DNA from: Inonotus obliquus
Lineage: Eukaryota > Basidiomycota > Agaricomycetes > Hymenochaetales > Hymenochaetaceae
Direction of reading: 5' to 3'
Length of the DNA: 64,000 nt
NCBI GenBank assembly: GCA_032164295.1
Contig: JAJHTX010000002.1
Location: forward strand, 3,224,001-3,288,000
Both the position numbers and the translations under genes were made by a program. Of the stretch, positions 3,497 through 26,404 are shown piece by piece. The notes below the pieces were generated by a model, which saw only the letters and a list, made by a program, of their open reading frames with translations, searched no databases and had not been told where the DNA came from. The stretch's first letter is position 1, and every line of letters starts with the position of its first letter.

Positions 3497-6400
3497 ATGG
3501 ACGGCCCACCGCCTCCAGAGGAGGACTTCTCCACACTTCCTGTCGCTGATCGCCTCGCTCACAAGAACTGGAAGGCAAGAGTCTCAGGATACGAAACCCT
3601 CATCAAAACATTCCAAAATACAGTCTCCGACTCTGATCCTGCTTTCAAACCTTATCTCAGCAATCCAGATACCCTCAAGAGGATCACAATAGATGCCAAT
3701 GCAGTCGCTCAGGAGAAGGGTGTCGAGGCAGTTGTAGCGTTCGTTAAGTTTGCTGGAGAAACCGCAGCGAAAACACGTGAAGTGGTCGTACCTGGTTTGG
3801 TCGATAAATGCTTTGGCTCTGCCCGTGCGGGGACGAGGAATCAAGCGATTGAACTCGCTTTGCAGTACGTCGAAGTTGAGAATGGTGGAACCGGTGTCGT
3901 GGTGCGTCCGCCTCGCCCTTTGTGTAACTGAATGCAACTCATGATACACGAACAGAACGATATACTTCCTGGTCTAGGCGCCAAACAGCCCAAAACAGTT
4001 GCGGGCTGTATTGTGGCTTTGAATGAATGTGTAAAGTGCGTCTACATGTAGCTCGAGCTGAAGTAGTACAATAACTCTCGCTTGCAGGGCATTCGGCTCG
4101 ACGGCCGTTCCTCCACCACCAATATTGAAAGTCTTACCGAAAATTTTCGGTCATACGGATAAGACGGTTCGCGCCGAAGGGAGTAATCTTGCCCAATCGT
4201 TGTATCAATGTATTGGACCGGCAATTGAGCCATGGCTAGCAGACCTCAAGCCGGTACAAGTGAAGGAATTGAAGGAAAGCTTTGAGAAGATGGACGGCGA
4301 GGGAAAGGGTAAAGGTTCTTTGAAACCGGAACGCTTCACGAGAGCACAGGCTCGAGAGATGGAAGCTGGTGTAGAGGATGAGGTTCCTCAGGAAGGTCCG
4401 TCCATATCGTGTTATTCCTTGTCGCTGCGCAGGACAATGCTGAGCATACTCTAGATCCTGTCGAGATGGACCCGCGCGCTTTCGCAGAGGAGGTGGATAT
4501 ATCTGATAAGGTGCCTTCAGGGTTCCAAGCTGCTCTTGGGTTGTCGAAGTGGAAGGAGAGGAAAGAAGCATTGGATGCGCTCTTAACGGTTCTTAACGCA
4601 ACGCCGCGAATAAAGGATGGTCCTGAAATTGCGGACGTGGTCAAAGCGCTGGCCGGGCGTATGTCTGATGCAAATATCAACTGCGTCATGACTGCAGCAA
4701 ACTGCTTGGAGGCGTTGGCGAAAGGAATGATGAAGAGCTTTGGAAGATTTCGCGATGTAGTCGTCCCGCCGATACTGGAACGACTCAAGGAAAGAAAACA
4801 AAACGTAACTGATGCCCTTGGCAATGCTCTTGACGCAGTTTTTGCGACGGTATGCCTTTTTTTCTCCGCATACTCAACGCGACTTATCTGTCTCTAGACA
4901 ACGTTACCTGATACACTCGAGAACATTCTCCCTGCGCTTTCGTCCAAAAATCCTCAGGTCAAGGAAGGGACGATGAAGTTTTTGTGTCGCTGCTTGACTA
5001 CGACCACTATACCCCCAGCAGCTCCGCAGGTAAAGCCTCTTTCAGAGGCTCTCGCAGGTCTTCTCGAAGATTCATTCGAAGGAGCACGAAATGAAGCTGC
5101 GACATGCTTGGGGACGCTCATGAAAATTGTTGGAGAGCGCCCGTTAAACGCCATCATGGATCAATTAGCGGATGTCCGAAAGGTCAAAGTCAAAGAAGCG
5201 TACGAGAAGGCTACCGTGAAATGCAAGGCAGGTGGTGGACCAGCCCCTCGTGGTGGAGCTCCTCCCGCCAAAGCGAAACCATCAGCAACAAAGCCTCCTG
5301 CTTCCGCTCCCGTTCCTAACGAGGACGCATTGACCAACGATATCGGCCCGCCAAGACCAAAAGCGAAGCCGCCCGCCCGCTTGCTAGCAAAGAAAGCCGC
5401 AACGGATGATGCTCCTAACGGAGAATCGCCTACATCAGAGCAACCAAAACCCGTCGCAAAGATCCCTGCTCGTCCAATGGTAGGTCTCCGATCGTCTAAC
5501 AAAAAGACAAGAAACCTGATCTGGATTGGTACAGCAAGCCAAGAAGCCCGCCCCTGCAGCTGCAGCTGTTGCAGCGTCTTCCAAATCTGCAAAGCCTTCT
5601 GCTCCAGCCCCTCCTGGTGCTCTGGACGCCTTCAAATTCAAGCATTCTTCGGAGGATGCCGAAGCTCTTGCAGCGGATCTTATTCCCAGCGAAATCGCTA
5701 CAAACCTCAGTGATTCGAACTGGAAGTTGCGATTGGGGGCCCTTGAAGAGATGACCACATGGATTGAAGGTGTTGTGGGTTCTGTGGAAAGTGAAGTCAT
5801 CGTTCGCTTCTTGATCAAGAAAGGAGGGAACGAGAAAAACTTTCAGGTATTAGTCACGTTGATTCCTGGCTCGTTAATACCTAACTTTCATTTGAAGGTC
5901 TCATCGAAGCTATATGGAATTCTTTCTATCTTAGCCGAACGGTGCCCGACATTCGGACGGTCCTCCGTGGCTTTGGCGAGCCCCCATCTGAGTGAGAAGC
6001 TGGGTGACATGAAGCTGAAGAAACCTGCTGGCGAGACGCTCTCACTCTTTGCAGAAAAGACTTCATTGCAGTTCGTATTAAATCATGGTAATAGTAGCCT
6101 TTACCCACCCCGGCTATCTTGTTATTGACATTAACACTACGCAGCGTACGAGACTCTGAACAAGCAGAAGGCGCCCAAAGTTCTTGCCGATTCCTTGGGC
6201 TGGATAGATACCGCCCTCACAGAATTCGGCGTATCCGGCATATCTCTCCGAAGTCTTATCGAATTTCTCAAGACCGCGCTAGGAAACTCAAACGCTGCTG
6301 TGAGGACAAGTGCTACTAAGACTCTGATAACCATCAAGCTCTTCGTCGGACCAAGTACGCCCACATTTCCCGCATAGTTCTCCGTTTAATTGCTGAACCT

Positions 6401-9400
6401 CGTTAATTAGGCGTAAAGGAGCTTCTAGGGGAGGTCAATCCTCAATTGCTCGCTACCATTCAGAGCGAATTTGATAAAGTTGAAGGAAAACCTGCTCCCG
6501 AACCTTCCAGGACATCTGTGGATGTGCAAAATATGGGATCGGGCAGCAGCTCCTCGAAGGGTCCCGCTGCTGTCGACGCCATGGATGATCTTTTCCCGCG
6601 CGTAGAGGTTGACGGGTTACTGAAGGGTACGACGATTTTGACAGGAGCAAAAAGTGATGCGTGGAAGGTTAAGAAGGAAGCCCTGGAAACTCTTCAGGCT
6701 ATCCTTGACCAAGGGCCCAATAAACGACTGAAGCCAAGCATGGGTTCGTTTGCAATATAATAACAGTAGCACCAGGTTCTCTGACATTCAGGATTTTACA
6801 GGCGAGATTGGGCAAATACTCAAGGCTCGAGTAACGGACACCAACAAAGCGGTACAGTTGCTGGCGTTGGATGTCGTTGCACGTATCGCTACCGGTATGG
6901 GCAGGCCATTTGAAAAGCACACTCGTTTCTTTGCATTACCGGTTGCGACAGTCCTTTCTGATCAAAAGGCGAACATCCGACAGGCGGGATTGGCGACGTT
7001 GACTGCCATCGCAGAAGCCTGCGAAGGTGTCGACAGTATGGTACATGGTTTCGCAACCGCACTCGAATCAGCCAACCCACTGCAACGGGCGACCCTTCTC
7101 AACTGGATTGCTGAATGGTTCAAAACGCATGAACCTAGCGCATCCCTCGACTTGAGCACATGGGCAGCTCCGATCGTGTCGTGTCTGGATGATCGAAGTG
7201 GCGACGTTCGAAAGGCTGCTCAAGCTGCCTTGCCCTTCGTAATTGCGCAGTGCGGTGTTGACTATGTATTGCAGCAGACGAACTCTTTGAAGCCTGCGTC
7301 CAGGACGAGCGTAATGCCCCTTGTCAGAGCCGCCGCTGCCGCTGCGCCAGAGAAATCAAGTAAGCCAGATTCCGTCCCCGCGCCAGCGCCTGTCAAGCCA
7401 CCAGCGCCAACCTCAGTCAGTCCACCTCCCCAGTCACCCCAGCCGACACGATCGGATTCTCCTGCTACCGCACAACCTTCTGCACCTGTTGCAAGCAAGC
7501 TCACTGGGGTACGCCGTAAGCTTCCGCAAGGTTCCATATCTAGGCCAGACTCAAGAGCAGGTGCTATTGAGGAGCCTTCCGCCGTTGCGGCTCCGTCACG
7601 CATAGCCTCAAAGCCTGGGCTAACCGGTTTAAAGAAACCTGTAGGTATATTCACTGCCAAACCGGCTGCAGCCGCTGCTCCTTCGCCGACTTTGTCTGCA
7701 CCGTTTATAACTAAGAACATCGAAGCTAAGAAGTCCAGACTGAACAAGGATGGTATTCGCTGGATAGTCGAGTCTGGTCCTATTCGAAAAGACCTCGTTG
7801 ATCTCCTCCAGGTTCAAATGGAACCGCACATTTCGAGAGATTTGCTATCTCAGCTGTTCAGTCGAGACCATAATGCGGTCAACGACTTCGTTTCAGGCAT
7901 GAATATGATTTGTGAATTCTACCAGGCATTGGTCACGGGTGACGACAAATATGGGTTTAGCGGGCAGGATCGTCATGATGTCGGAATTGCGAATACAGAC
8001 TTGGCCCTCAAATATGTGTCAGTTCGTGTTCACGAACCTCAGCCTAACCTTATAGGCAAATGCCTCGACGTTGTAGAGAACATCATGGCATTCCTTCGTG
8101 ATGTTAATTACCAGCTGAGCGATGCCGAAGCCTTGTGTTTTGTTCCGACTATCATAAACAAGGTCAGTCTTTATTTTGTCTTCTGTTGTGCAAAGCTGAC
8201 GTGCGTCATAGCTTGGAGACGCTCGTGAGGCAGTCCGTATTCGGGTCCAGCAGATCATCCAGTCCCTTCCTAAGGTCTATGCGTATAGTAGAGTCTTCCA
8301 ACTTCTGACGGACTACGGTCTGAAGTCCAAGGTAGCCAAGACGCGACAGGGGACTCTGGATGAGATGGCTGGTATAATAAAGCGTACAGGAGTAGCGGCT
8401 TGCGAACCGACAAAATCATTTCCAGTCCTGGCGTCCATGATTTCCGACAAAGATGCGTCAGTGCGCAAGTCAGCCCTGAATACCCTCGGGGAGGGATATG
8501 TATTAGTGGGCGAAACCATATGGTCGTATGTCGGACCTCTATCTCCCAAAGATAAGACTCAGCTCGAAGAACGATTACGACGCGTTGCGGGTCCTAGCAC
8601 TGCGGAGGTTCCGGAAACTGTCGCACCTCCCTCAGTACCAGGTCCTTCATCGCGGCTGGCTTCTGGAATCGCCAAACCAGGCCCCCGAGTCAGCGCCATA
8701 GGAGGGATACCTCGCCCGTCTTCCCCCGCTGTTGCAGCCAACTCCCGTTTTGCACGACCTGCTTCACCTGCTCTACCCGCACCTTCCACAGGACCTGCCG
8801 GTACACCCGCGGTATCCAGACTTCCAAAGAACGCAGCTTCAGACCTTGCTTCTCCACGCCTTGCCCGTCCAAAGAGTTTCTTGCCATCTCGTCTTGGTAA
8901 TTCGCGAATAGCAGGGCCGTCATTTGCCGCTCCGACTCAGGTCCAGACCGAGGAAACCGCACCTGGCTCAAGACCGCTTAATGGGCAGCATTATCGACAA
9001 TCATCCACAGCTACGATCAACGCAGCTGAGGACCTGGCGCCTGTCCCGGAACCAGAAGAGCCAGAGGGAGATGGTGTTTCTTTGACTATCTCAAAGATCT
9101 TGAGCAGTGATTCAGCTCGGAGCGTCGACGCGCTCAAACAAATTCAAAGGGTACTCGAAGTCAGTCCCGATGATGGATCATCTTCACCGGCTTACATGGA
9201 ACTATCGGATCACACGGAAGGATTGATCGAAACTATTACGCTGCAGATGAGCCATGTATTTGAGAATGCCTCAACCATCGTCGAACCGGAGAATTTCCGT
9301 CTCGCTAAGCACCTGATTCAAACTATCAACGCTTTCTGCGACCATCCCTTGCTGGCCGAATCGATCCAGGTTGAAAATCTGGTAGGCCTATTTGAGGAGT

Positions 9401-10761
9401 TGACTCTTCGTTTACTCCAGACGGACGAGAGTGAAAGTAGCAAAGTCAAGGATCTCTCTAGGTTTATAAACATGATCATTCTTCGACTATTCGCAACGTG
9501 CCGGCGAATGGCAGTGCTGAGGTAACGTCTTCCCTACACCCCTCTTCGTATACCTGGCTAACAAATTTATCAGGGCTCTGTTTTCACTGCTGCTACAGAT
9601 AGTCAAACCATTCCCGGTCAACGGAACAATGCCCGATACTAAAGAAGCAAAAGTCGCGGAATTAGTCTTGAAGTGCATATGGAAACTCGCCCGAAACATT
9701 CCGACAGATTTAGAGAAGGAGGACTTAGACCCTGTGGAATTATTCCCCGCTATAGAGCACTTCTTGCAATCCATCCCGCCGAACGAATGGAGAGCACGTG
9801 CAACGAATAAAGTTCCCAGCGGCGACATGCCACTCCGCACCATAAAAGTAATAATCCAGCATGTTGTTGGTAAGTAGTACTGTTCTTCCACGTTGGAACA
9901 CTGATTTAGGACCGTTGCTCCCTTCAGCTTTCTATGGGGATGATGTTTACGACCTACTTTCATCTTCTTTCGAGGATCCATCAGCAACTATTGTGTATCC
10001 TTATGTGTATCGCATTTTAAACACAAGCCGAGCAAACCAAGAGAATGGTGCTCAGCGACAGCCGACGAATGGATCTTCAAATGGTGCCGGTCGACCTGAA
10101 TCGCGTGCCTCAGCCAGTCAACCTGCGAGCCCACGAGCTAGATCGTCCGTTGCTTCAAACGATCGCCAAAGTTCAGTGCCGAGTCGACATACGTCTCACA
10201 GCGGTTTGTCGGCGAATGGTGGTGGTATGCTTCCCCCTCCCGTTGACGAGCCGGACCCGGATGATCAGCTGTTGACGATTATCAACCATATTTCGAGTGA
10301 AACGACGGGTGCCATGCACAAGGAAGGGATCACGGAGCTACATCACTTCCTCAAAGCCTATCCCCACAAGAAGCCACGCGTCGATAGGATGCTTGAAAAC
10401 ACTGGTCCCGCTTTCAGAAAGTACATAGCCCGTGCCTTGGCTAGCAGAGCTGCTGAGGACGAGGAGCGTAATGTAGCAGTTGCGGATACCCTTTCCAGTA
10501 TGCTGACTATCTCTCTTCCTTCTCTTCAATACTAACTTATTGCCAGAGCTTGAATCAAAGAGCCGTGAAGGTGTTTATCCCGCCCAGACGGAGCGCGAAT
10601 CTATGTCACCGAAGTCACCTACGTCGCCAAGGAGATCCAGTGGACCAACTGAGCTACCTCCTGCTGACGAGGAAAGGCTGCATCGGTTGCATGACTTGTT
10701 CCGATACCGAGCCAGCACGACGAGTAATGGCTCACGGACAAAGGATTCGGAGGGGAGCTGA
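3497..10761 (+). CDS. STU2: XMAP215/Stu2 family TOG-domain microtubule polymerase
   Basis: A large multi-exon gene (roughly 2,000 residues by estimate) for a Dis1/XMAP215 microtubule plus-end polymerase, which loads tubulin through TOG (HEAT-repeat) domains. TOG1 starts at once (ADRLAHKNWKARVSGYE, 3550-4370). TOG2 follows (ALGLSKWKERKEALDAL, 4530-5220), then a Lys/Ala/Pro linker (5220-5620). Three further TOG-like arrays begin near 5640 (SDSNWKLRLGALEEM), 6580 (SDAWKVKKEALETLQ) and 7720 (up to about 8570), separated by Ser/Pro/Ala-rich basic linkers. A helical C-terminal region covers 9060-10540. Introns are short, for example 5482-5533 before QAKKPAP. The last exon begins with ELESKSREG and stops at 10759-10761. 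Ascomycete Stu2/Alp14 have two TOGs; the longer layout resembles animal ch-TOG. Family certain, TOG count by eye. Confidence 0.88.
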
Positions 10762-13979: not shown

Positions 13980-15262
13980 TTGAACTTTTTTGTACTTTCT
14001 TATGCACTATATTCTCGGACAATTTGAATCAGATTGCATCGCACAAGGAGGAAAGTCAGTCTATGTAGTACATCCATCGGTCCAGATTATCGCAAGCCAG
14101 TGTACGAGAACCAAAGAAAGAAATGATACAGCTAGAGTCTAAGGTGTTCAAATGAGAAATAGGAGGCATTAACGGGATACGGTCCGGAAAGAAAGTCTAC
14201 GGATGTCTCAGGGAACAAATGCGTGGGCGAGTTTACGGGCTGGGTAATCCTTTTATGGCGATATACGGCTCACGACGCATCAAATACTTGCTGAACTCTG
14301 TACCACAGTTCGCGCAGCTACAAGGGAAAAAGAATAAAAATGAGGTTTTGAAAATATAATAAAAAAACGAAGCGGACCGAAGATCTGTGACGCCATTTAT
14401 GAACTGAAAGAAGATTAGCATCAGCGACTCAATCATTTCTAAAGTCTATCTCAGAAAAACACGCGCTAGAACCGACCGACCTGTGTATGTGAACATCCGC
14501 CCTCTTCAGCCTTGTAGTTTCCCAACGTCTCTTTACCCAGGTCCATACAACGAATAGATACCTATGGATTCATTGCATATTCTTGGCTGTGTCGGTTGCA
14601 GTTTGCAACTAAGACACTTACGGCTCTAGCTGAATGACTTCCCTTTGCCCTGTTCAGCATGGCCTAGCGTAAACATCGGGTGCCTTGCTATAGAATACAA
14701 AAAAGACTACTCACGGAACGTGTTTCGTTATAATATAAATAGGTTCGCCTCTTTGACAACCGCACTTTTCGACTTGCAAATAGGGATCAGTCGACATCGT
14801 AGCAAGAGTCAAAGACAACGAGCTTCAAGTGGGTGGGGGCTGTGTCAGAGGTAACAGGTAAAGAGGCTATAAGTTGAAGCGAGTAGAGGTGGGGAATCCT
14901 AGACAACCCGAGAGAGGATACTGTTTCTCTGCCATCGTCGACCACCTCTTATATCGCGATTTGAGGCCAAGGGTAGACGAATTTTTTGTCTGCAGCTCAC
15001 CCGCAGCGAATGATAAGGCATAAAGTTACCGAATCTCCGTGATAACCATCTATAGACCCCTTAGCTCAGATCCATTTCAGTCCACAACAAATTCCATATA
15101 CGCGTCATCGCACACATCGTCTTTACACTACGGAAAGGAAAGGCTAAGGCCGGAACTTTGTATTTGAAAGATCACGAATACAGAACACTTGATACTGTGT
15201 TTTAAAAGCTCCCGCGCCGTGCAATCGCTCTGACTTCACAGGGCACGAGGCGGAAGAAGTCA
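13980..15262. other. Convergent intergenic region, no gene seen
   Basis: About 1.3 kb between two convergent 3' ends. Open frames are short and unrelated to each other; I found no conserved motif, tRNA or repeat. The 14330-14370 stretch is A-rich (poly-A runs near 14360). Confidence 0.5.
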
Positions 15263-17212
15263 TCAAAGCTCTCGCTGCGTGCCTGCGGTGAGGACTTCGA
15301 CGCCCGTATCTGTTATCCTGTGAGTCATCGCCTCGTCATCACTTCTTCTTCTCACGCTTCTTGAATGTATTTGGAAATGGCTTACAGTAAGGTTTCCTCG
15401 AATTGCGCGCTCCTTTTCCCGTCGGCTGTCGTGCACGTCCAGTCATCTGGCCAGTGTAATCCATCCCAAGTTCCGAGATTGATCATCTGAAAGAAGAAAG
15501 GAGAAGCCTTCAGTCGCAGTCACCTGGTACTATGAGGTGATCGCGTACCGGCTCGATAGTAAATGTCTTCCAAAGCAGTAATATCAGCATCAGTACGAGA
15601 TTCAACTGATATGAAAGACTCGCCATCCCGGGTTTCATTGTCCCAACCGCTTTATTCTTGGCATAATGAGGTATGTTGGTGGGATTACCATGGAACAATT
15701 CATTGATACCGTGCGCAGTGTACTGGCGCACAACAGAACACCCGTTGCGCTTGGCTATTGGTTCACTGGGATGCAAAATCCAAACCAGTCAGAGATGTAG
15801 AATGATAAGGACTGAGAAACCGAGTTGTAAGTACGCACATAATTTTCCCAATATCCCGGAACAGGGCGCCAGGCTTGCAAATCTTGATAGCCTCGTCCAG
15901 ACACTCGCGAGTCGTTCGGATGAGCTTTTTCGACTCCTCATCGACGTCACCAACAGGATACATCGCGTTCAAATCTCCGTGGAACCCTAGAATCCAGCAT
16001 CGAGATCTCCATTAGACAATGCCAGCCAGGCAGCTGGATAAAATAGTACATGCCGTCATAATAAAGACTGACGTCTGAGGTGAAAAGTTTAAGACTTCCT
16101 GCGAGAAACAGAGATAGACTGAGCCAGACCAATGTTGATAATGTCACCGTTCAAGAGAGGCCGACGGTCTGGAATTCCATGGCAAATTACTTCGTTCACA
16201 GATCTAGCCCAATCGCGGAACAACGTCAAAGTTAGGAATATGTGTACGGTCAAATAAGACAACATACGTGCAAACTGATTTAGGGAAACGCCGATAGTTC
16301 AAGGGCGAGGGATATGCATCTCGCTCAATGGTGGCTTCATGGACTATTTCATCGATTTCATCGGTAGTTATACCAGGCTGTACGGCGGCACCCGCGATGT
16401 CCAGAATCTCTCGGCCAAGCTTGTCGAGTAGAGGAAGTATTAGAACAAGGACTGGGCACATACGAGTGGAGCGAGAAATACGTACCCTGCATACCGTTCG
16501 CATCTTTTCCTGCTCTTCTGGAGTCAATATGCGTGGCGGACTTCCCAATGCTAACCTTTCAGATTTCGATTCTCCTAGAACTTGAGATTCCAAGATGATA
16601 ATAAATATTAACAGGCTTGCCCTGAACGGAATGGAAAAAGGACTTAACCCTACCATCATCAGCGTAGTCTGGTCTAGGGATATGGCTTGGAACAGTTCGC
16701 CGAGGGGACAAGGGGTATGCTGGTCTCAAGGAACCAGAGAATTTGAAGTTGCCAAAGGGATTCTCTGGAGCTGGAACTATGTTTAGTCATTTAGCGTCAT
16801 GAAGAGAATTCATGTAACATCCACCTTTCCTTGTTAACGACGAGTTTACAAAGTCATGGATGATTTTATGTTGTTTCTTTCGCACGAGAATTAAGCCTGG
16901 CTGACCTACTAGATTGTGTAATTCTTGCTTACCCCTGCATGATGAACTTGTCAGCACTTTGCTTGTTGGTATATTATTTTACTCACAGTCCTTCTTGAAG
17001 CATTCTTGATTGCAAAAGAAAGATCCCTGGATACCGAGCCTACGTTAGAGGCCTAGATAAGCACCCGGAATTTTCCTGAGATCATGAAGGCTGGTCGAAG
17101 CAGTGAAAGGGGCTCACCTGTTGCAAGTAGGACATTCTAGACGCGAAGGAGGGTTTCCGTTGGTGCAATTTGTGCTTTGACATGGCACACTGGTAGTTTC
17201 AGTTGGGCCCAT
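15263..17212 (-). CDS. MAP1: Methionine aminopeptidase 1
   Basis: Cytosolic, ribosome-associated type 1 methionine aminopeptidase, which removes the initiator Met. The first exon (from 17212) opens [16 protein letters not shown] with Cys pairs, and the next reads [15 protein letters not shown]: together these form the N-terminal zinc finger typical of eukaryotic Map1. Later exons show the catalytic core: [17 protein letters not shown] [65 protein letters not shown] and TMKPGM|TFTIEP. The last exons read [20 protein letters not shown] and [17 protein letters not shown] before TGA at 15263-15265. The intron at 15567-15623 starts with GC, not GT. The gene is divergent from the first NYN gene, 294 bp away. 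Confidence 0.9.
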
Positions 17213-17506
17213 GACAATAAAAGACTAAGGGAAGGAAGGAAGAAGGACGGTTAGTGGCGGAATGCACGTGACTGATCCGAAGCTGAAAAAGGATCGATAA
17301 GTTGAAGTCATTGGGTGAGAAATACAGAACGTTCTGACTCACACCCATCAGCTCCCTCAGTAGTGAACGAGTCGCACCAACAGTGGGCAACGTAAGGGCG
17401 GGTACAAACGCACTATTACTTGTATCCCCCTCAGTGTTCGTCGTAATCTCCTCAAGTTGCTAACACTGCTGAATTCGTGTCTCTGGGGCGCCTTTCATCC
17501 ACTATA
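17213..17506. promoter_or_regulatory. Divergent promoter MAP1 / NYN gene 1, with E-box
   Basis: A 294 bp interval between divergent start codons. It contains a CACGTG palindrome at 17265-17270, the core site of bHLH factors such as Cbf1/Pho4. Function is inferred from the motif only. Confidence 0.4.
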
Positions 17507-19357
17507 ATGAGAATAACCGCCTCTAAAATCGGTGTATTCTGGGACTATGGTGGGTATTTGGTTCCCTTGGTCATTTTCTTGCCGTTGACAATGTCCTCCA
17601 ATTCATAGAGAACTGCCGACCGCCCCCCAACATCCCGGGGAGTAAGCTTGTCGCCAATATACGGCGCCGAGTTCAACCATTCGATCCGATCAAAGTGTTC
17701 AAGGCATACGTCGACTTGTCATTGGAAAGTACAAATCCAAGATCCGTGACTCTCCGTTCAGACCTTCAGTCATCAGGGTTAACGTTGGTACACTGCCCTC
17801 ACAATGGTGTGAAAGACGTCGTGGACAAGATGATGATAGGTAAACGCGACAGACGAGTATGCATATGATGATCTAATGATGGAGGTTTTCTTTAGTCGAC
17901 CTTATGACTTTCGCGTTGGACAATCCACCTCCGGCAACAATAGCGATCATCACTGGTGACCGTGACTTAACATACGCGGCAGCGGTGCTAAAGTTACGCG
18001 GGTATAGGATAACTGTGATAGCTCCGAGTTGGGCATGTCCGGGTTTGAAGATGCAGGCCGATGAGCTGTTCGACTGGCACAGGGACGTGACTGGTGCAGA
18101 CGAACAAGCGAGAAGTACAGCTGATCCATGCGAGTCGGTCAACGTATCGGCGGTAGACGTGCAGAGTCAGCAGCGTTTAGCTCCGCCGCCCAAATCCGAA
18201 TTGTCCCAGACATCACATAAACCTGCGAATGTAACAAATTCGAGCATGCCGGGAATCAATCGGACTGAGGACTCAATGAAACACGCGACATCAACTACTC
18301 CGCTTCCTGCGAATCCGCCAAATGGCGCGCTCGACCGAGTCTTGACAAGTACGTTCTCCCTTGTTCTAGCCCGACCAGACCTTGACATGATTTTGTATTG
18401 CAGGTCGGCACGGCTTTGAAGGGGCTTGTACCCTTGACTTCGAATCAGATGCAGATGAAGACGACGATGACTGCGGCTGCGCGATATGTACAAGGCCTAC
18501 TGGGGTAATTCGGCCCTCCCACGGGTCCACTAATAAAAAGGCGGGTGAGTAACAGCGTACTCTGTGAGCAATAACTCTTATTCATGTACTGTGAAGACGT
18601 GGCAATTCAAGCCAGCTTGCCCAAAGTTCCTCCTGATGGTAACGCAATCGACGTGGACCCTAAGTTAACAACGGCAGTACCTAGTAGTGTGTCGTCAAAC
18701 GTCTCTTCCACGAATACGGTGGAGGCATCGTCCATTGGGTCAGAACGAGAAAAGTTGAATGATGATTTACTCGATCTATGGAAAAACATTTACCGCCTCA
18801 AGCCGTTGATCGTTTGTTTCATCCAGCAACGGGATCTCTTGGGTACGAAACGATTGCGAGCTTCGGTTGTTGCCTCGGCAATGTTGAAGATGAAGCCAAA
18901 CGTGTACCAGATTGCTGGTGTGGCTGGGATGAAGCAGTACGTAGAACAAGCGAGGCAAGCAGAAGTTGTCTTGCCAGCGCAAGGCAACGAGGGCGATGAC
19001 TGGATCGAGCTAAATCCCGCCTTCGACAATTTGAACTGGGATTTCACGCAAAAGGAGCAAAGTGTAATGCCCGAGACACAAGCAGCAAAACCGAACCCAA
19101 TCACGTCAGGTGCTAAAATCACAGCAGATCCCATATTCAAGCCTCTTGTCGAACGTCTACGAGCAGAAAGTCCGTCCTACAAGGTGGAAAGGACTCTGCT
19201 CGGTACTTTTTTCAAGGAGAAACATCCGGATTTGTACAAACGCGCTGGCGCTAGTCGACTCGCAAAGTACCTCGAAATGGCTGAGAAGCGAGGGCTCGTA
19301 ATTCCTGATACGAAGAAGAAGTGGGTTAAGCTCGCACCAGCCCATCGGCACGGCTGA
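17507..19357 (+). CDS. NYN-domain RNase with LOTUS-like modules (copy 1, MARF1-like)
   Basis: Five exons (17507-17549, 17609-17839, 17896-18348, 18404-18544, 18597-19357) give 542 residues. The N-terminal NYN domain (PIN-like, Mg-dependent RNase fold) shows KIGVFWDYENC (Asp13, Asn16), LQSSGLTLVHCPHNGVKDVV and AIITGDRDLTYAAAVLKLRG, with all acidic positions kept. A Ser/Thr/Pro linker follows. Exon 4 adds an acidic run and Cys cluster (DADEDDDDCGCAIC) not found in the other copies. Two winged-helix modules resembling LOTUS/OST-HTH close the protein: LRASVVASAMLKMKPNVYQ (about 18763-19035) and FKPLVERLRAESPSYKVERT then LLGTFFKEKHPDLYKRAG (19123-19350). The layout recalls animal MARF1/limkain-b1, an oocyte mRNA-decay factor. 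The NYN call is strong, LOTUS moderate, the role unknown. Confidence 0.8.
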
Positions 19358-19789
19358 AGACCGATGCGGCGTCCACAACAACTGTTCACGCTTGCCCGAA
19401 GAATTACTGTCCTATCTGTCCATTTATCTGCTTTCGTCCTGCTATCATTGCAATCCTTTCTTGTATCTCCATCAACTGATTCGCGAAAACAATTTCGTGT
19501 GTGCACGAGTACTCTTGTAACTATGTGTTGTATTGTAATTCCAAAGAGCCGCTGCACCACAGCGTTGCGTATCGATTAGTGGCCAATTGAACCAGTCTTG
19601 AATGAAAGTATTTATATGCATTGTGTTACTATCAAAGAATACAAAGCAGAATACATCCTTGCTGAACGAGATGACATGATATGAGCTAGTATACAAATCC
19701 CAGTGAAGGACACAAGAAAGACAATTTAACCGTAATAGCAACTACACTATCATCCAATACATCAATACATCACTTCCGTTCGTAAGCAA
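19358..19789. other. Tail-to-tail spacer, duplicated at 23381-23867
   Basis: The spacer between NYN copy 1 and the decayed copy 2. It is clearly related to 23381-23867: both contain phrases such as GGACACAAGAAAGACAATTT and ATCATCCAATACATCAATA in the same order. Shared noncoding sequence shows that a whole two-gene unit was duplicated. Confidence 0.7.
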
Positions 19790-20330
19790 AGAGTGTCCTC
19801 TCCCTAGCCATTACCACCAAAAACAGTTCCACACTAAGCTGGCATGAGCTCAGCCCATTCACTCCCAGGTGACCAATCCGAATTATACCCAGCTTATAAG
19901 CTCTTTCAAGATAAGCTGGACCTGAGACTCCATCTCGTTCGCTTAAATCTGCATGTTCTATTCGGAAGAACGTTCCGAGTGTAGATTGGAGAAGTCTGTG
20001 ATTGGGGTGGTTGTGTTTGAGGACGATTAGATGGTTTTGCGGGTACGGGAGGATCAGAAGGGATGTCATTCTTCGCTACCGTGGTCGGAGGATACAGGGA
20101 AGGATTTATCTCTACGCATATGTTCCCCTGTTTATCCAAACAATGATTACACCTACTTTTTGCGCTTCTTCAACGTAAGCCTTCAGCTTTGTCACTCCCG
20201 CCCTCTGGTAGATTTGTGGATCCCGCTTTCGGATCGTTGTTACAGCTTCAGACGAGATAATGCGAGTGGATTGACTGTGCTATCGGAGTCTCGGGTGTTA
20301 CACTTTCCTCCTTTCGCGCTACACTCCAGT
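19606..20330. repeat. Direct repeat, copy A (with 23640-24410)
   Basis: This block resembles 23640-24410 in the same orientation across the tail-to-tail spacer and into the C-terminal coding part of the minus-strand gene (for example TTCCGTTCGTAAGCAAAGAG and CTCAGCCCATTCACTCCCAG in both). Identity is clearly lower than in the inverted arms, so this duplication looks older. Limits are approximate. Confidence 0.65.
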
Positions 20331-20815
20331 TCAAATCGTCGAAGGCGGGATTGAGCTCGCAAGACAAATCTTGCTTTCCTCGCTTGTTCTACGTACTGCT
20401 TCATTCCGGTCACACCAGCAATCTCGTACACATTTGGCTTCTTCAGCAGCATTGCTGAGGCAACAACTGGGGCTCGTAACCGTTTCGTACCTTAGCGATC
20501 CCGTTGCTGGATGAATCAAACGATCAGCGGCAAGAGAAGAATGGTTCGCCTGAGAAAGGTAGTCCACATCTTTCGTTCTGACAGGATCGACAACGCCACC
20601 GCCGTGGACGTGGAAGATACGATTGACAAATTAATACAAGTTGTTGCCGTTGTTGAGTCAGGATCCACGTCGAATGCATTACTACCAGGCGGGACTTGCC
20701 ACATCTTCGCAGCATTTGAATAAGAGTATCGTTCATAAAGTACATTGCTACTCACCTGTCCTGTTGTTTGGGGACTTGTGGGAGGCAGTAGCTTTGGTAC
20801 GTATCGCGCAAGCAC
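19790..20815 (-). pseudogene. Decayed NYN/LOTUS gene (copy 2), LOTUS part only
   Basis: No single frame is open, but the minus strand carries recognisable pieces in order. At 20740-20580 is a piece like the linker of copy 1 (PPGSNAFDVDP versus PPDGNAIDVDP), with remains of the preceding intron. At 20560-20340 is an A-type LOTUS module (KKPNVYEIAGVTGMKQYVEQ). At 20280-20120 is a B-type module (STRIISSEAVTTIRKRDPQ, then AGVTKLKAYVEEAQKVGV). At 20070-19850 is the terminal module (LGTFFRIEHADLSERDGVSG). Frameshifts and stops separate them, and I see no NYN domain upstream. It would be the only copy with three modules, and probably arose by inverted duplication of copy 1 plus fusion to a B-type end. 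Confidence 0.7.
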
Positions 20816-21225
20816 AGTCTCTTCATTTCCTTCAAGATCGTGTCGGGATAGAACACGTGGAACGTACTAGCCAAGACTCGGTCGAGTGCGCCATTAATAT
20901 ACAGCGGATTCATTGGACGCGGATGTACTCAGCCAAAGAGGACTCGGAGTCCAAGCTTGCGTGAGGGAAGGTCGAAAAGTCAACTGGAGATATATGCAAG
21001 CAAAGGCGACAATCATGGTTATCCTGAAAAGGAGATAATTTCGGAGTTGCATTGACGCACTTCAGTTCCAGTGCACGCTTCAATGGTGAGGATGCGGCGA
21101 GCCACCTCGTTGCCTCGGTCAACAGCAATATCCATCCTTGGCCATAGTCCAGTACGTGTCCCAAACCCTTCCATGCATACGGGCTCTACTTCTCCAACAT
21201 CAGAATTATCTTCTGGAATTCCGTA
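20816..21225. promoter_or_regulatory. Upstream region of NYN copy 3
   Basis: About 410 bp before the ATG of copy 3. From about 20925 on it belongs to the left inverted-repeat arm and is matched by sequence upstream of copy 4 (26094-26404), so the promoter was copied with the gene. A CACGTG site lies at 20854-20859, just outside the arm. Confidence 0.5.
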
Positions 21226-22689
21226 ATGCCTCCGACAACCTCAAGCCAAGTTGCCATTTTCTGGGATTATGGTGTGTTGATATCACGCTATAATCATACA
21301 TATACTTGAACTTTGACTCCGTTCAGAGAACTGCAGACTTTCTAACGACAGCGATGGGAACAAAGTCATTGACAGAATTCAATGCATCGCCCAGAGTTTC
21401 GGGAGTATCACAACTTTCAGAGCTTACCTTGACCTTTCTCTCGATTGTGCATATTCAAGATCAATAACATTGCATTCCGACCTTCAGTCCTCTGGGCTCA
21501 CTCTCGTCCACTGTCCTCACAATGGAAAAAAGGATGTTGCGGATAAGATGATGATAGGTATGCTGAGATATTCCTCATTCCAGAATATATCACTCAATCT
21601 TTGAATAGTGGACATGCTTGCCTTTGCGATTGACAGGCCTGCACCAGCGTGTATCGTCCTCATAACAGGGGACCGCGATTTTGCGTATGCCGCTGCAATT
21701 CTGAAACTACGAGGATACCATGTAATCGTCATCTCTCCCACATGCAACACGCATTCAAGTCTGAAAGTCCGGGCTCACGAGCTATACGACTGGCAGAATG
21801 ACGTGCTCGGTGGTACGGGCGGAGGCAGTCCTGTAATTAATTCTAGCGGACATAAGGTTGTCGGATCGGTCGCTTCGGCTTCTCAGATGAATGGAGGATC
21901 GATTTCTGAAGCCACCGGACCGATTGTTTCGCGGGACCGAAGTATACCCGCTCCCCTGAAGCTAGGCAGTGCCACTCAGACGCTGGCTTCCGTTTGTGAC
22001 TCACGCCCAGCATCCGTTGCGACACTCGATGTGAAATTGGACTCAGCGGCTCGAGCAGTGCAAGCAGATAGTACACCGGACTATCTTACAGGTTCATTGT
22101 GCGACAATAGGGCGACAGCTTTATCTTCGGATGAACGGTCGACGCTCGTCGGCATGACAGCAGAAGACGCCCAGTCTATGAGGACTACCGAGGGCAGTCA
22201 GCCATCATCGGGACCTAAAGTTATCGCTTGCCCGTCCCCCGTGAAACCAATAGGATCGAAGATCTCCTACTTCGGACGAGGGGCGACGTCACTGCCTTCC
22301 ACAACGGATACGAGCACTCCAAGCAACGAGTCGTCATTGGTTTCCGAACCAATCAGCTCATCCTTCTACGATAACTTATCATCAAGGGATGGTTACGGCA
22401 TCTCCAACACCCTGAACCCAGTCCTCAGTCAGTTTGGATTGGGTGCGGTAGAGAGGGCCGTGCGCCAGGACGAATACACTCCCTTCTTCGCGGGCGTTAA
22501 TGAAACGGAGAAACGAAAGGCTACAATAATATCTCGTAATAGTACAGACACGATCAACTCTATAACGACAGAAGCCAGTCAAATCCGTTCTGATACAGCC
22601 TCGTCATCCAGCAAGACGGTTCCCCTTAATCCACAGGCTGCTTCATTCTTGCCAACATTTCAGACTGAACAGACGAATTCTACCGAAAC
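20925..22689 (+). repeat. Inverted repeat, left arm (promoter, NYN and linker of copy 3)
   Basis: This block is repeated in inverted orientation at 24550-26404. Similarity starts in the promoter (GTACTC...GGAGTCCAAGCTTG), is very high through the three NYN exons and linker, and stops abruptly after GAATTCTACCGAAAC at 22689. In the encoded linker I count about a dozen residue differences plus one indel of about 24 residues. Confidence 0.85.
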
Positions 22690-23380
22690 TCCAACTACAC
22701 GAGTAGAAACATCAGAGCATGCATTTCCCCCACCTTCACCACGCGTTTCTTCCACGAATTCGACGGAATCACCATCTATTGAGTCAAAACAAGAGACGCA
22801 ACCCCCTCGATATCGATTGATCGGTCGCTTCTTCCCGCTAATCCTTTGCTTCATCGAGCAACACCAAGTCTCGGGCCTGACACGATTGCGTGCTTCATTC
22901 GTCGCCTCGGCAATGCTGAGGATGGACCCAAATGTGTACAGGAATGCCGGTGTGACTGGGATGAAACAGCTCATTAAAGAAGCGAGACTAGCAAATGTTT
23001 TGCTGCCGTCTGAAGGTGACGAAAATGATGAGTGGATTGAGATCAGTCCCAATTGCGACGGTTTCGACTTCAAAGCTTCCAGAAAGAAACACGATCAGGC
23101 ACAAGCAGTAAATTCGAAGCCAACCACGTCAGGGGCTCAAATCACTGTAGACCCCATATTCAAGCCTCTTGTCGAACGTTTACGGATGGCAAGTCCGTCA
23201 TACAAGGTGAAAAGGAGCAAGCTCGGTACGTTCTTCAAGGAAAATCATCCGGATTTGTACAGACGCGCCGGCGTTAGTGGACTCTTAAAGTACCTCAGAA
23301 AGGCTGAGAAGCAAGGCATTGTAGTTCCTTGTAGAAATGAGAAGTGTGCCGAACTTGTGCCAGCTCTTCGCGTTGGCTGA
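21226..23380 (+). CDS. NYN-domain RNase with LOTUS-like modules (copy 3)
   Basis: Three exons (21226-21271, 21327-21557, 21609-23380) join in frame to 682 residues. The NYN domain carries QVAIFWDYENC (Asp14, Asn17), LTLVHCPHNGKKDVADKMM and VLITGDRDFAYAAAILKLRG, so the putative metal-binding acids are present. A long Ser/Thr-rich, probably disordered linker (about residues 190-490) follows. Then come an A-type LOTUS-like module (LTRLRASFVASAMLRMDPN, VYRNAGVTGMKQ; about 22809-23062) and a terminal module (FKPLVERLRMASPSYKVKRS, then LGTFFKENHPDLYRRAGVSG; 23149-23370). The C-terminus pairs with copy 1, while the N-terminus is almost identical to copy 4. Intron positions match copies 1 and 4. A role in RNA decay or defence against selfish RNA is inferred, not shown. 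Confidence 0.82.
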
Positions 23381-23867
23381 AGACCGACGTGGCGTCCACA
23401 AGGACCACAACAACCGTTCACTCTTGCCCAAAGATCCATCTATCTATCCATGTATCTTGCTTTCTTTTTGCTATCCTCTTTGCAATCTTTTCTTGTATCT
23501 CCATCGACTGATTTGCAAAAACAATCTTGTATATATGTAACGATGCTTCGTTATCGACAGAGAGCTACTGCGCCACGGTATTGGTATTGCGCATTAATTA
23601 ACAGCCAATTGTAGTAAAATTCAAATGGACCTTGAATGGAAATATCAGTATTCATCTCATTACTACACGGTACAATCAAACTGATATTTAAGAATACAAA
23701 ATAGAATACATCTTCGCTAAATGACATGGCAAGATATAGCTGAGTTAGTATACAATTCCCAGTAAAGGACACAAGAAAGACAATTTAACCACGATAGCAA
23801 CTAGAAAACAATATCATCCAATACATCAATATATCATTTCCGTTCGTAAGCAAAGAGTATCCTCTCC
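23381..23867. other. Tail-to-tail spacer, second copy
   Basis: Spacer between the convergent stops of copies 3 and 4. It is homologous to 19358-19789 (see there) and shows no open frame of its own. Confidence 0.65.
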
Positions 23868-24410
23868 CTAGCCGTTACCACTAAAAACGGTCCCACGATA
23901 AGCTGGCATAAGCTCAGCCCATTCACTCCCAGGCGATACCCCTTTACCAATTCGAATTATACCCAACTTTTCAGCACTTTCAAGATAAGCTGAAAGACCT
24001 GAAACCCTAGCTCGTTCGTAGAGGTCTGCATGTTCTTTTCGGAAGAATGGTCCGAGTGTGGAATAGAGAAGTCTGTGAGATGATGTTTCTTGTCGGAGGC
24101 GATTTGTGAGAGGGGCGTAGATCCATTCCCATTCGGAAGGAGATGATTTAGAATTTTGGGTTGAAGGAGGGTTGGATGGTTTCGCAGGGGAGGGAGGATC
24201 GGGAGAGATATCATTCTTGGTTACCTGAGGTTTAGAATGTAGGGAAGGATACAGGGAAGGATTTATCTCTACCCAAGCAGTTCCTTGTTTGTCCAACCCA
24301 GGGCTGATGATTACACCCGCCTTCCTGGCCTCATCAATGTAAGCCTTCAGCTTCGTCACTCCCGCCTTCTGAAAGACTTGTGAATCCCGCTTTCGGATCG
24401 CTGACGCAAC
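23640..24410. repeat. Direct repeat, copy B (with 19606-20330)
   Basis: Second copy of the block described at 19606-20330. It covers the tail-to-tail spacer and the B-type/terminal LOTUS coding region of copy 4; here the coding frame is intact. Confidence 0.65.
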
Positions 24411-26093
24411 TTCGGATGAGATAATGCGAATCGATTGGCTGGAAGCCTTCCGTTCATTGAAGAAGATTATGAGTGTCTGGAAACGCTGTCTATCGTTCTT
24501 TGTAGGAGTTGGTGGGTCGAGCGTTGGACATGCTACCGGCGTAGATGATGTTTCGGTAGAATTCGTCTGTTCAGTCTGAAATGTTGGCAGGAATGAAGCA
24601 GCCTGTGGATTAAGGGGAACCGTCTTGCTGGATAACGAGGCTGTATCAGAACGGATTTGACTGGCTTCTGTTGTTATAGAATTGATCGTGTCTGTACTAT
24701 TACGAGATATTATCGTAGCCTTTCGTTTCTCCGTTTCATTAACGCCCGCGAAGAAGGGCGTGTATTCGTCCTGGTGCATGGCTCTCTCCACCGCACCCAA
24801 TCCAAACTGACTGAGGACTGGGTTCAGGGTGTTGGAGATGCCGTAACCATCCCTTGATGATAAGTTATCGTAGAAGGATGAGCTGATTGGTTCGGAAACT
24901 AATGACGTCTCGTTGCTTGGAGTGCTCGTATCCGTTGTGGAAGGCAGTGACGTCGCCCCTCGTCCGAAGTAGGAGATCTTCGATCCTATTGGTTTCACGG
25001 GGGACGGGCAAGCGATAACTTTAGGTCCCGATGATGGCTGACTGCCCTCGGTAGTCCTCATAGACTGGGCGTCTTCTGCTGTCATGCCGACGAGCGTCGA
25101 CCGTTCATCCGAAGATAAAGCTGTCGCCCTATTGTCGCACAATGAACCTGTCAGATAGTCCGGTGTACTATCCGCTTGTACTGCTCGAGCTGCTGCGTCC
25201 AGGTTTACATCGAGTGTCGCAACGGATGCTGAGCGTGAGTCACAGACAGAAGCTAGCGTTTGAGTGGCACGGCCTAACTTCAGGGGAGATGACTCGGGTA
25301 TACTTCGGCCCAGGGATAGAGAATGGTATTTGCCAGCTTGTCCTCCTATGGGTGTTATAGATTCTATGCAACCCTGTCCCTGAGAAACATTCGGCCCTGT
25401 GGCTTCAGGAATCGATCCTCCATTCATCTGAGAAGCCGAAGCGACCGATCCGACAACCTTATGTCCGCTAGAATTAATTACAGGACTGCCTCCGCCCGTA
25501 CCACCGAGCACGTCATTCTGCCAGTCGTATAGCTCGTGAGCCCGGACTTTCAGACTTGAATGCGTGTTGCATGTGGGAGAGATGACGATTACATGGTATC
25601 CTCGTAATTTCAGAATTGCAGCAGCATACGCAAAATCGCGGTCCCCTGTTATGAGGACGATACACGCTGGTGCAGGCCTGTCAATCGCAAAGGCAAGCAT
25701 GTCCACTATTCAAAGATTGAGTGATATATTCTGGAATGAGGAATATCTTAGCATACCTATCATCATCTTATCCGCAACATCCTTTTTTCCATTGTGAGGA
25801 CAGTGGACGAGAGTGAGCCCAGAGGACTGAAGGTCGGAATGCAATGTTATTGATCTTGAATATGCACAATCGAGAGAAAGGTCAAGGTAAGCTCTGAAAG
25901 TTGTGATACTCCCGAAACTCTGGACGATGCATTGAATTCTGTCAATGACTTTGTTCCCATCGCTGTCGTTAGAAAGTCTGCAGTTCTCTGAATGAAGTCA
26001 AGGTTCACGCATTTATGTATATTGATTATAGCGTGATATCAACACACCATAATCCCAGAAAATGGCAACTTGGCTTGAGGTTGTCGGAGGCAT
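23868..26093 (-). CDS. NYN-domain RNase with LOTUS-like modules (copy 4)
   Basis: Three exons on the minus strand (26093-26048, 25987-25757, 25705-23868) give 704 residues. The first two thirds are nearly identical to copy 3: the same NYN motifs (QVAIFWDYENC, ITGDRDFAYAA), the same intron phases and the same linker, except for an extra stretch of about 24 residues (GCIESITPIGGQAGKYHSL) and a dozen substitutions. After the linker the protein switches to a different B-type LOTUS-like module (SIRIISSEVASAIRKRDSQ, FQKAGVTKLKAYIDEARKAG). Its terminal module (LLYSTLGPFFRKEHADLYER, ARVSGLSAYLESAEKLGII) is homologous but divergent from that of copy 3. All catalytic acids are present. It is probably the product of recent gene conversion or duplication that put one NYN head on two kinds of LOTUS tail. 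Confidence 0.82.
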
Positions 26094-26404
26094 TACGGAA
26101 TTCTAGAAGATAAGACTGATGTTGAAGTAGAGCCCGTACGCATGGAGCGGCTTGGGACATGTACTGGACTATGGCCAAGGATGGATAATGATGTGCAATG
26201 AGGTGGCTGGCCGCATCCTCGCGGCCATTGAAGCGTGAGCAAGTGATCATGATGGCCGTTCGGACTCAGCACAACTCCGAAATCATCACCTTTTTCGGAT
26301 TCCTTTGTTTACATATGTTGTCTCCAATTGATCTTTGTACTTTTCGACTTCCCCTCAAGCTTGGACTCCAAGTCCTAAGCCCACTCGACTTCGGCCGAGT
26401 ACCA
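24550..26404 (-). repeat. Inverted repeat, right arm (promoter, NYN and linker of copy 4)
   Basis: The inverted partner of 20925-22689. Homology starts at GTTTCGGTAGAATTC (24550), right at the point where copies 3 and 4 switch tails, and runs through the NYN exons to the promoter near 26404. It is longer than the left arm, partly because of the linker insertion near 25290-25370. Confidence 0.85.

What the first reader, a model, noticed from the sequence alone, without database searches (positions are those of the whole stretch)
17507..26093. Clustered NYN-LOTUS (MARF1-like) RNase genes in a fungus
Three intact genes and one relic encode an N-terminal NYN nuclease (FWDYEN, PHNGxKDV, TGDRDxxYAA) joined to C-terminal winged-helix modules of LOTUS/OST-HTH type. 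In animals this pairing defines MARF1, which degrades mRNAs in oocytes and controls retrotransposons. Here the genes form a local, fast-evolving, partly palindromic cluster, as defence or self/non-self loci often do. A working idea is a family of RNA-targeting nucleases in which exchangeable LOTUS tails choose the RNA or protein partner. Seen: domains, copies, intact acids. Known: NYN/LOTUS roles in animals. Inferred: defence or germ-line-like role in the fungus.
Basis: partly seen in the sequence, partly recalled or inferred. Interest (0 to 1): 0.88.

Follow-up and report, generated by a model that had tools for sequence, protein, structure and literature searches.

The report
Shuffled MARF1-like RNase gene cluster
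A fungus carries a small cluster of related genes that each join a likely RNA-cutting head (like animal MARF1 and plant DNE1) to LOTUS-like tail modules, and DNA exchange inside the cluster has put the same head on different tails.

The parts
17507..19357 (+). Gene A, 542 aa, exons 17507-17549, 17609-17839, 17896-18348, 18404-18544, 18597-19357; NYN head, long linker, two winged-helix modules
17507..18089 (+). NYN head of A (residues 1-156, introns included; D13, D87, D113)
18797..19024 (+). LOTUS-like module 1 of A (residues 357-432)
19127..19354 (+). LOTUS-like module 2 of A (residues 467-542)
19807..20922 (-). Relic B: A-type linker end and first module, then D-type modules, several frames and in-frame stops; no NYN head found
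21226..23380 (+). Gene C, 682 aa, exons 21226-21271, 21327-21557, 21609-23380; D-type head and linker on an A/E-type tail
21226..21805 (+). NYN head of C, dS 0.019 from D
22829..23056 (+). LOTUS-like module 1 of C (groups with the middle module of E)
23150..23377 (+). LOTUS-like module 2 of C
23868..26093 (-). Gene D, 704 aa, exons 26093-26048, 25987-25757, 25705-23868; head and tail both group with the same Sanghuangporus genes
25509..26093 (-). NYN head of D
24252..24482 (-). LOTUS-like module 1 of D
23901..24128 (-). LOTUS-like module 2 of D (residues 619-694)
21134..22653 (+). Tract shared by C and D (promoter region, NYN, linker), 88-100% by windows; identity is 74% at 22654-22753 and about 43-56% beyond
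24533..26376 (-). The D arm of that inverted repeat
15073..19073 (.). Arm of an inverted repeat (90-91%) with C2:3218178-3222348 left of the window; holds a methionine-aminopeptidase-like piece (label recalled) and most of gene A; the partner holds the other piece and most of gene E

Best explanation
The locus is a local expansion of a MARF1/DNE1-type endoribonuclease gene. Each protein has an N-terminal NYN domain that cuts RNA with a metal ion held by conserved aspartates, a long linker, and two or three C-terminal LOTUS-like winged helices that bind the RNA target or a decay partner. Most likely they act in cytoplasmic mRNA decay on selected transcripts, as MARF1 and DNE1 do. Exchange between inverted copies keeps heads alike while tails diverge or move between genes, which yields nucleases with the same cutter and different recognisers. 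Shown here: domains, copies, inverted arms, head/tail recombination, purifying selection on parts of the proteins. Inferred: RNA cleavage, tail binding, target choice, cytoplasmic decay role.
Against: No RNase, RNA-binding or expression data. The MARF1 Asp427 position is Lys in all four genes. Pfam OST-HTH matches no module; hhalign probability is only 46.9%; the bacterial reference protein P0049 is itself under the OST-HTH cut-off (16 against 23.8 bits). In the fold list the single-domain LOTUS rows fall on module 2 only, module 1 is matched by ORC1-type and other winged helices, and such rows tie with 5yad within 1 Z; Foldseek alone put JetABC first, with no hit at E <= 0.001; no LOTUS chain is among the 50 rows for P0006. 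No RRM was seen, unlike MARF1. Four of nine modules have low or negative net charge (C module 1 -2, E middle -1, E last +1, D module 2 +1), so not every module need bind RNA.
Confidence: 0.6

Rival explanations
1. RNA-based defence or retrotransposon control: the copies diversify because tails recognise changing foreign RNA (mycoviruses, transposons).
For: Clustered, recombining copies with relics. Between two Sanghuangporus proteins (P0001/P0002) NYN is 97% identical, module 1 65%, linker 55%, module 2 89%. MARF1-null mouse oocytes accumulate retrotransposon RNAs (PMC6294520 passages).
Against: Positive selection in the tails could not be shown (A/E module 1 dN/dS 0.62, not distinguishable from 1, p 0.48). 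Relatives with one to four modules occur in several Agaricomycete genera, as expected of a housekeeping gene too. Recognised neighbours are ordinary.
Confidence: 0.15
2. The tails are DNA- or protein-binding winged helices unrelated to LOTUS, and the NYN head acts on another substrate.
For: Pfam does not find OST-HTH; ORC1 and MarR-type winged helices are close in Z to MARF1 LOTUS (ORC1 within 1), and ORC1-type rows cover module 1.
Against: The profile match is to OST-HTH and not to five decoys; NYN heads are joined to OST-HTH in the bacterial family and to LOTUS in animals and plants (PMC10226599 passages).
Confidence: 0.13
3. A killer or self/non-self locus: nuclease copies act as toxin and modified copies as antidote, inherited together.
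For: Both killer proteins of the Arabidopsis pollen killer PK3 carry limkain-b1-type NYN domains and share sequence with the antidote (PMC11761171 passages). Chimeric paralogues and relics in inverted repeats look similar.
Against: D-type genes, and with less support A-type genes, have counterparts in several Sanghuangporus species, not an obviously patchy pattern. No strain data. All four genes keep the same aspartates, so none looks like a catalytically dead antidote.
Confidence: 0.06
4. A decaying gene family: copies are unexpressed and drifting.
For: Two relics; no detectable constraint on the A/E linker (dN/dS 0.69, p 0.20) or module 1 (0.62, p 0.48).
Against: Four uninterrupted spliced frames; purifying selection on A/E NYN (p 9e-5), A/E module 2 (4e-5) and C/D linker (6e-7).
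Confidence: 0.06

Closest known systems
Arabidopsis DNE1 (NYN + two C-terminal LOTUS domains)
   Same: Same order and number of domains as A, C and D (PMC10226599 passages; no RRM named in the passages seen).
   Different: Here four intact copies with swapped heads and tails, one with three modules; fungal modules are not matched by Pfam's OST-HTH model. Binding to DCP1 untested.
Animal MARF1 (limkain b1)
   [quoted passage not shown] here no RRM was found and there are 2-3 modules; Asp427 position is Lys.
Bacterial NYN (LabA/DUF88) + OST-HTH proteins (P0049 family)
   Same: NYN head with a C-terminal OST-HTH stretch (39 of 40 scanned); profile similarity of that stretch to the fungal modules.
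   Different: One OST-HTH stretch in P0049; only distant similarity in NYN (25.8% to the Boletus homologue P0014, E 0.06).
NYN proteins of the Arabidopsis pollen killer PK3
   Same: Limkain-b1-type NYN domains in proteins that share parts with a neighbouring gene product (PMC11761171 passages).
   Different: No LOTUS modules named in the passages seen; mitochondrial association there; no killing shown here.

Membership tests
NYN (PF01936), MARF1 type | Curated Pfam match and MARF1-like fold | tested here: met
NYN (PF01936), MARF1 type | Acidic patch Asp358, Asp426, Asp427, Asp452 (PMC6294520) | tested here: inconclusive
   Three of four positions Asp in A, C, D, E; Asp427 position is Lys; a further Asp in TGDRD
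NYN (PF01936), MARF1 type | RNase activity | not testable with these tools
   No assay
LOTUS/OST-HTH | Pfam PF12872 match over cut-off | tested here: not met
   0 of 16 proteins, 0 of 21 modules, none over cut-off in the genome; hence 'LOTUS-like', not filed as a member
LOTUS/OST-HTH | Winged-helix fold closest to LOTUS chains | tested here: inconclusive
LOTUS/OST-HTH | Profile similarity to known OST-HTH beyond decoys | tested here: met
   Score 25.3, P 2e-4, probability 46.9%; 100 of 100 shuffles lower; five decoys 10.0-13.8; reference family OST-HTH in 39 of 40 at E <= 0.1
LOTUS/OST-HTH | Minimal LOTUS: no C-terminal extension as in Vasa-binding eLOTUS | tested here: inconclusive
   In the A model each module ends in two strands and a three-residue helix; published view is that fungal LOTUS lack the extension (PMC5458760 passages)
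MARF1 orthologue | RRM domains | tested here: not met
   No RRM by Pfam in 16 homologues or in the exon pieces of A, C and D
DNE1-type (NYN + two LOTUS) | N-terminal NYN, two C-terminal LOTUS | tested here: inconclusive
   NYN plus two modules in A, C and D, three in E; the LOTUS label carries the doubt above
DNE1-type (NYN + two LOTUS) | Binding to DCP1 / mRNA decay role | not testable with these tools
   No interaction data
Gamete killer locus | Segregation distortion with toxin and antidote | not testable with these tools
   No crosses or strain data

The most novel reading that the evidence does not exclude
The cluster is a recombination device that mixes one RNA-cutting head with exchangeable, fast-diverging LOTUS-like recognition tails, serving a conflict function: a repertoire against mycoviral or transposon RNA, or a killer/self-recognition locus comparable to the NYN killers of the Arabidopsis pollen killer. 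The convergent C and D genes, alike in their heads and 488 bp apart at their ends, might in addition make double-stranded RNA from read-through and so tie the locus to RNA interference.
Probability: 0.12. Interest if true: 0.85.

Novelty: new variant of a known kind. Interest (0 to 1): 0.52.

Why it matters
LOTUS domains are said in print to occur in fungi, with their function there open (PMC5458760 and PMC6168497 passages). In the held library, 'NYN domain' with Agaricomycetes gave 0 papers, with Basidiomycota 4, with LOTUS and fungi 2, OST-HTH with NYN and fungal 3, limkain with fungi 4; by title none is about such fungal genes, and most were seen as listings only. If the reading is right, mushroom-forming fungi hold a MARF1/DNE1-type family whose tails Pfam does not label, and this locus offers natural head/tail chimeras. 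C and D, with nearly the same head on different tails, are ready-made material for asking whether LOTUS tails set the target of an NYN nuclease.

Tried and rejected
Pfam, NCBIfam and PDB sequence searches gave no LOTUS hit for the tails. Foldseek on A's two-module tail gave no hit at E <= 0.001 and listed JetABC and Egalitarian chains first; the VIA second look was used. Whole-gene recent duplication for C and D was rejected: identity stops at the linker/tail junction and the modules are saturated at synonymous sites. Pseudogenes throughout: rejected. A mating-type or het locus found no support in Pfam hits of neighbours, but only 15 window open frames were scanned and 8 had no match. Adjacency in Sanghuangporus rests on near-consecutive locus tags and equal longest-contig lengths; no coding DNA of those genomes was at hand, so no dN/dS between species. 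Selection tests are Nei-Gojobori counts with Fisher tests on rounded numbers for segments that I chose; C/D NYN has three changes only (p 0.13). One paper search returned 5,237 papers through common words and told nothing. No LOTUS chain is listed for the P0006 model; its list is filled mostly by the NYN domain. The bacterial profile came from 120 close relatives of one protein (best 120 of 8000), so the comparison is narrow, and hhalign used 90 of the 100 fungal rows.
Full report
What is there. The window lies in contig C2 (3224001-3288000) of a 36.07 Mb genome in 30 contigs. The nearest homologues are from Sanghuangporus, Fomitiporia and Coniferiporia, so the host is most likely a hymenochaetoid fungus; this is inferred from similarity. 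Searching the genome with PF01936 and with proteins A and D finds one more intact gene, E (C2:3219811-3217489, minus, five exons, 700 aa), a truncated head relic at C2:3216591-3216428, and one distant NYN gene with a module-like stretch at C7. Such genome searches give lower bounds.

How common it is. Two protein searches gave 48 homologues; 24 carry organism names, all fungi (Agaricomycetes by my recall of the names). With an iterated module profile, 34 have two modules, 8 one, 1 three, 3 four and 2 none. The second search used a tail as query, which favours tails. In Sanghuangporus the hits carry near-consecutive locus tags (ACEPAI_5205, 5207, 5208; ACEPAF_4847, 4848, 4850) and equal longest-contig lengths, which suggests that the cluster is shared.

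Anatomy of the exchange. C and D are convergent. In windows of about 100 columns their identity is 92% in the promoter and start region, 95-100% through NYN and linker with a dip to 88% at 21929-22053, 74% at 22654-22753, and 43-56% beyond. Synonymous distance is 0.019 in NYN, 0.157 in the linker, and saturated in both modules. C's head pairs with D (100/99) beside Sanghuangporus D-type genes, whereas C's tail groups with A and E (98/99); D's head and tail both group with the same Sanghuangporus genes. So C is a recombinant with a D-type front half; the direction of copying is inferred. Relic B's match ends at about 20.92 kb, and the D-like stretch begins at about 20.94 kb, so the same event may have beheaded B (inference). 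The stretch across that junction (20693-21387) recurs beside E, 76% alike. A and E lie on inverted arms: 3228 columns at 91% and 884 at 90%, with a methionine-aminopeptidase-like piece on each arm (label recalled) and a gene with CLASP/TOG-type matches between. E has three modules: the first groups with A's first (dS 0.07), the second with C's first (dS 0.31), the third with A's second (98/90), though its dS to A (0.68) and to C (0.65) is about the same.

Selection. A/E NYN dN/dS 0.26 (Fisher p 9e-5), A/E module 2 0.26 (4e-5), C/D linker 0.28 (6e-7), C module 1 against E's middle module 0.36 (0.01); A/E linker 0.69 (0.20) and module 1 0.62 (0.48) are not distinguishable from 1; C/D NYN has three changes only (0.13). 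Between two Sanghuangporus proteins, NYN is 97% identical, module 2 89%, module 1 65%, linker 55%. Whether the faster parts are under positive selection cannot be told without coding DNA of those species.

How it most likely works. NYN cuts RNA, and LOTUS-type tails bind RNA or decay partners. MARF1's NYN is an endoribonuclease (PMC6294520); DNE1 has NYN plus two LOTUS domains and interacts with decay factors (PMC10226599 passages). That paper cites G-rich RNA binding by LOTUS from a work that is not held. In this locus near-identical heads are paired with different tails, so copies should share chemistry and differ in targets. This is inference from anatomy.

Against my reading. Lys at the Asp427 position, no Pfam support for the tails, tied fold matches, a narrow bacterial reference, modules with negative net charge (C module 1 -2, E middle -1), and no functional data. 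The conflict readings stay open: Arabidopsis pollen-killer proteins carry NYN domains (PMC11761171 passages). The spread of the family and the ordinary look of recognised neighbours make a decay enzyme with local expansion the simpler view.

Verdict. A new variant of the NYN-LOTUS kind.

Noticed in passing
window 15838-16548 (-) and C2:3220876-3221586 (+), L018: Two methionine-aminopeptidase-like gene pieces (label recalled; Pfam gave no match to the one open frame scanned) lie on the inverted arms beside A and E, 91-98% like the query by exon; the only other match in the genome search is 47% on C4.
   Followed up: partly
P0008 (Sanghuangporus baumii) and P0011 (S. sanghuang): D-type NYN heads joined to a lysine-rich stretch; in P0008 Pfam sees linker histone over its cut-off, followed by one module. 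Either a histone H1 copy landed in the gene or the annotation fused two genes.
   Followed up: partly
G000:C7:1655872-1656120, L019: A separate NYN gene with one C-terminal stretch that matches the fungal module profile (hhalign probability 93.9); perhaps an older family member.
   Followed up: partly
window 23380-23868: C and D end tail to tail 488 bp apart with nearly the same heads in inverted orientation, so read-through could give double-stranded RNA.
   Followed up: no
window 4898-9525 (+): Open frames with CLASP (over cut-off) and sub-cut-off XMAP215 TOG and HEAT matches, lying in the loop between the inverted arms.
   Followed up: partly
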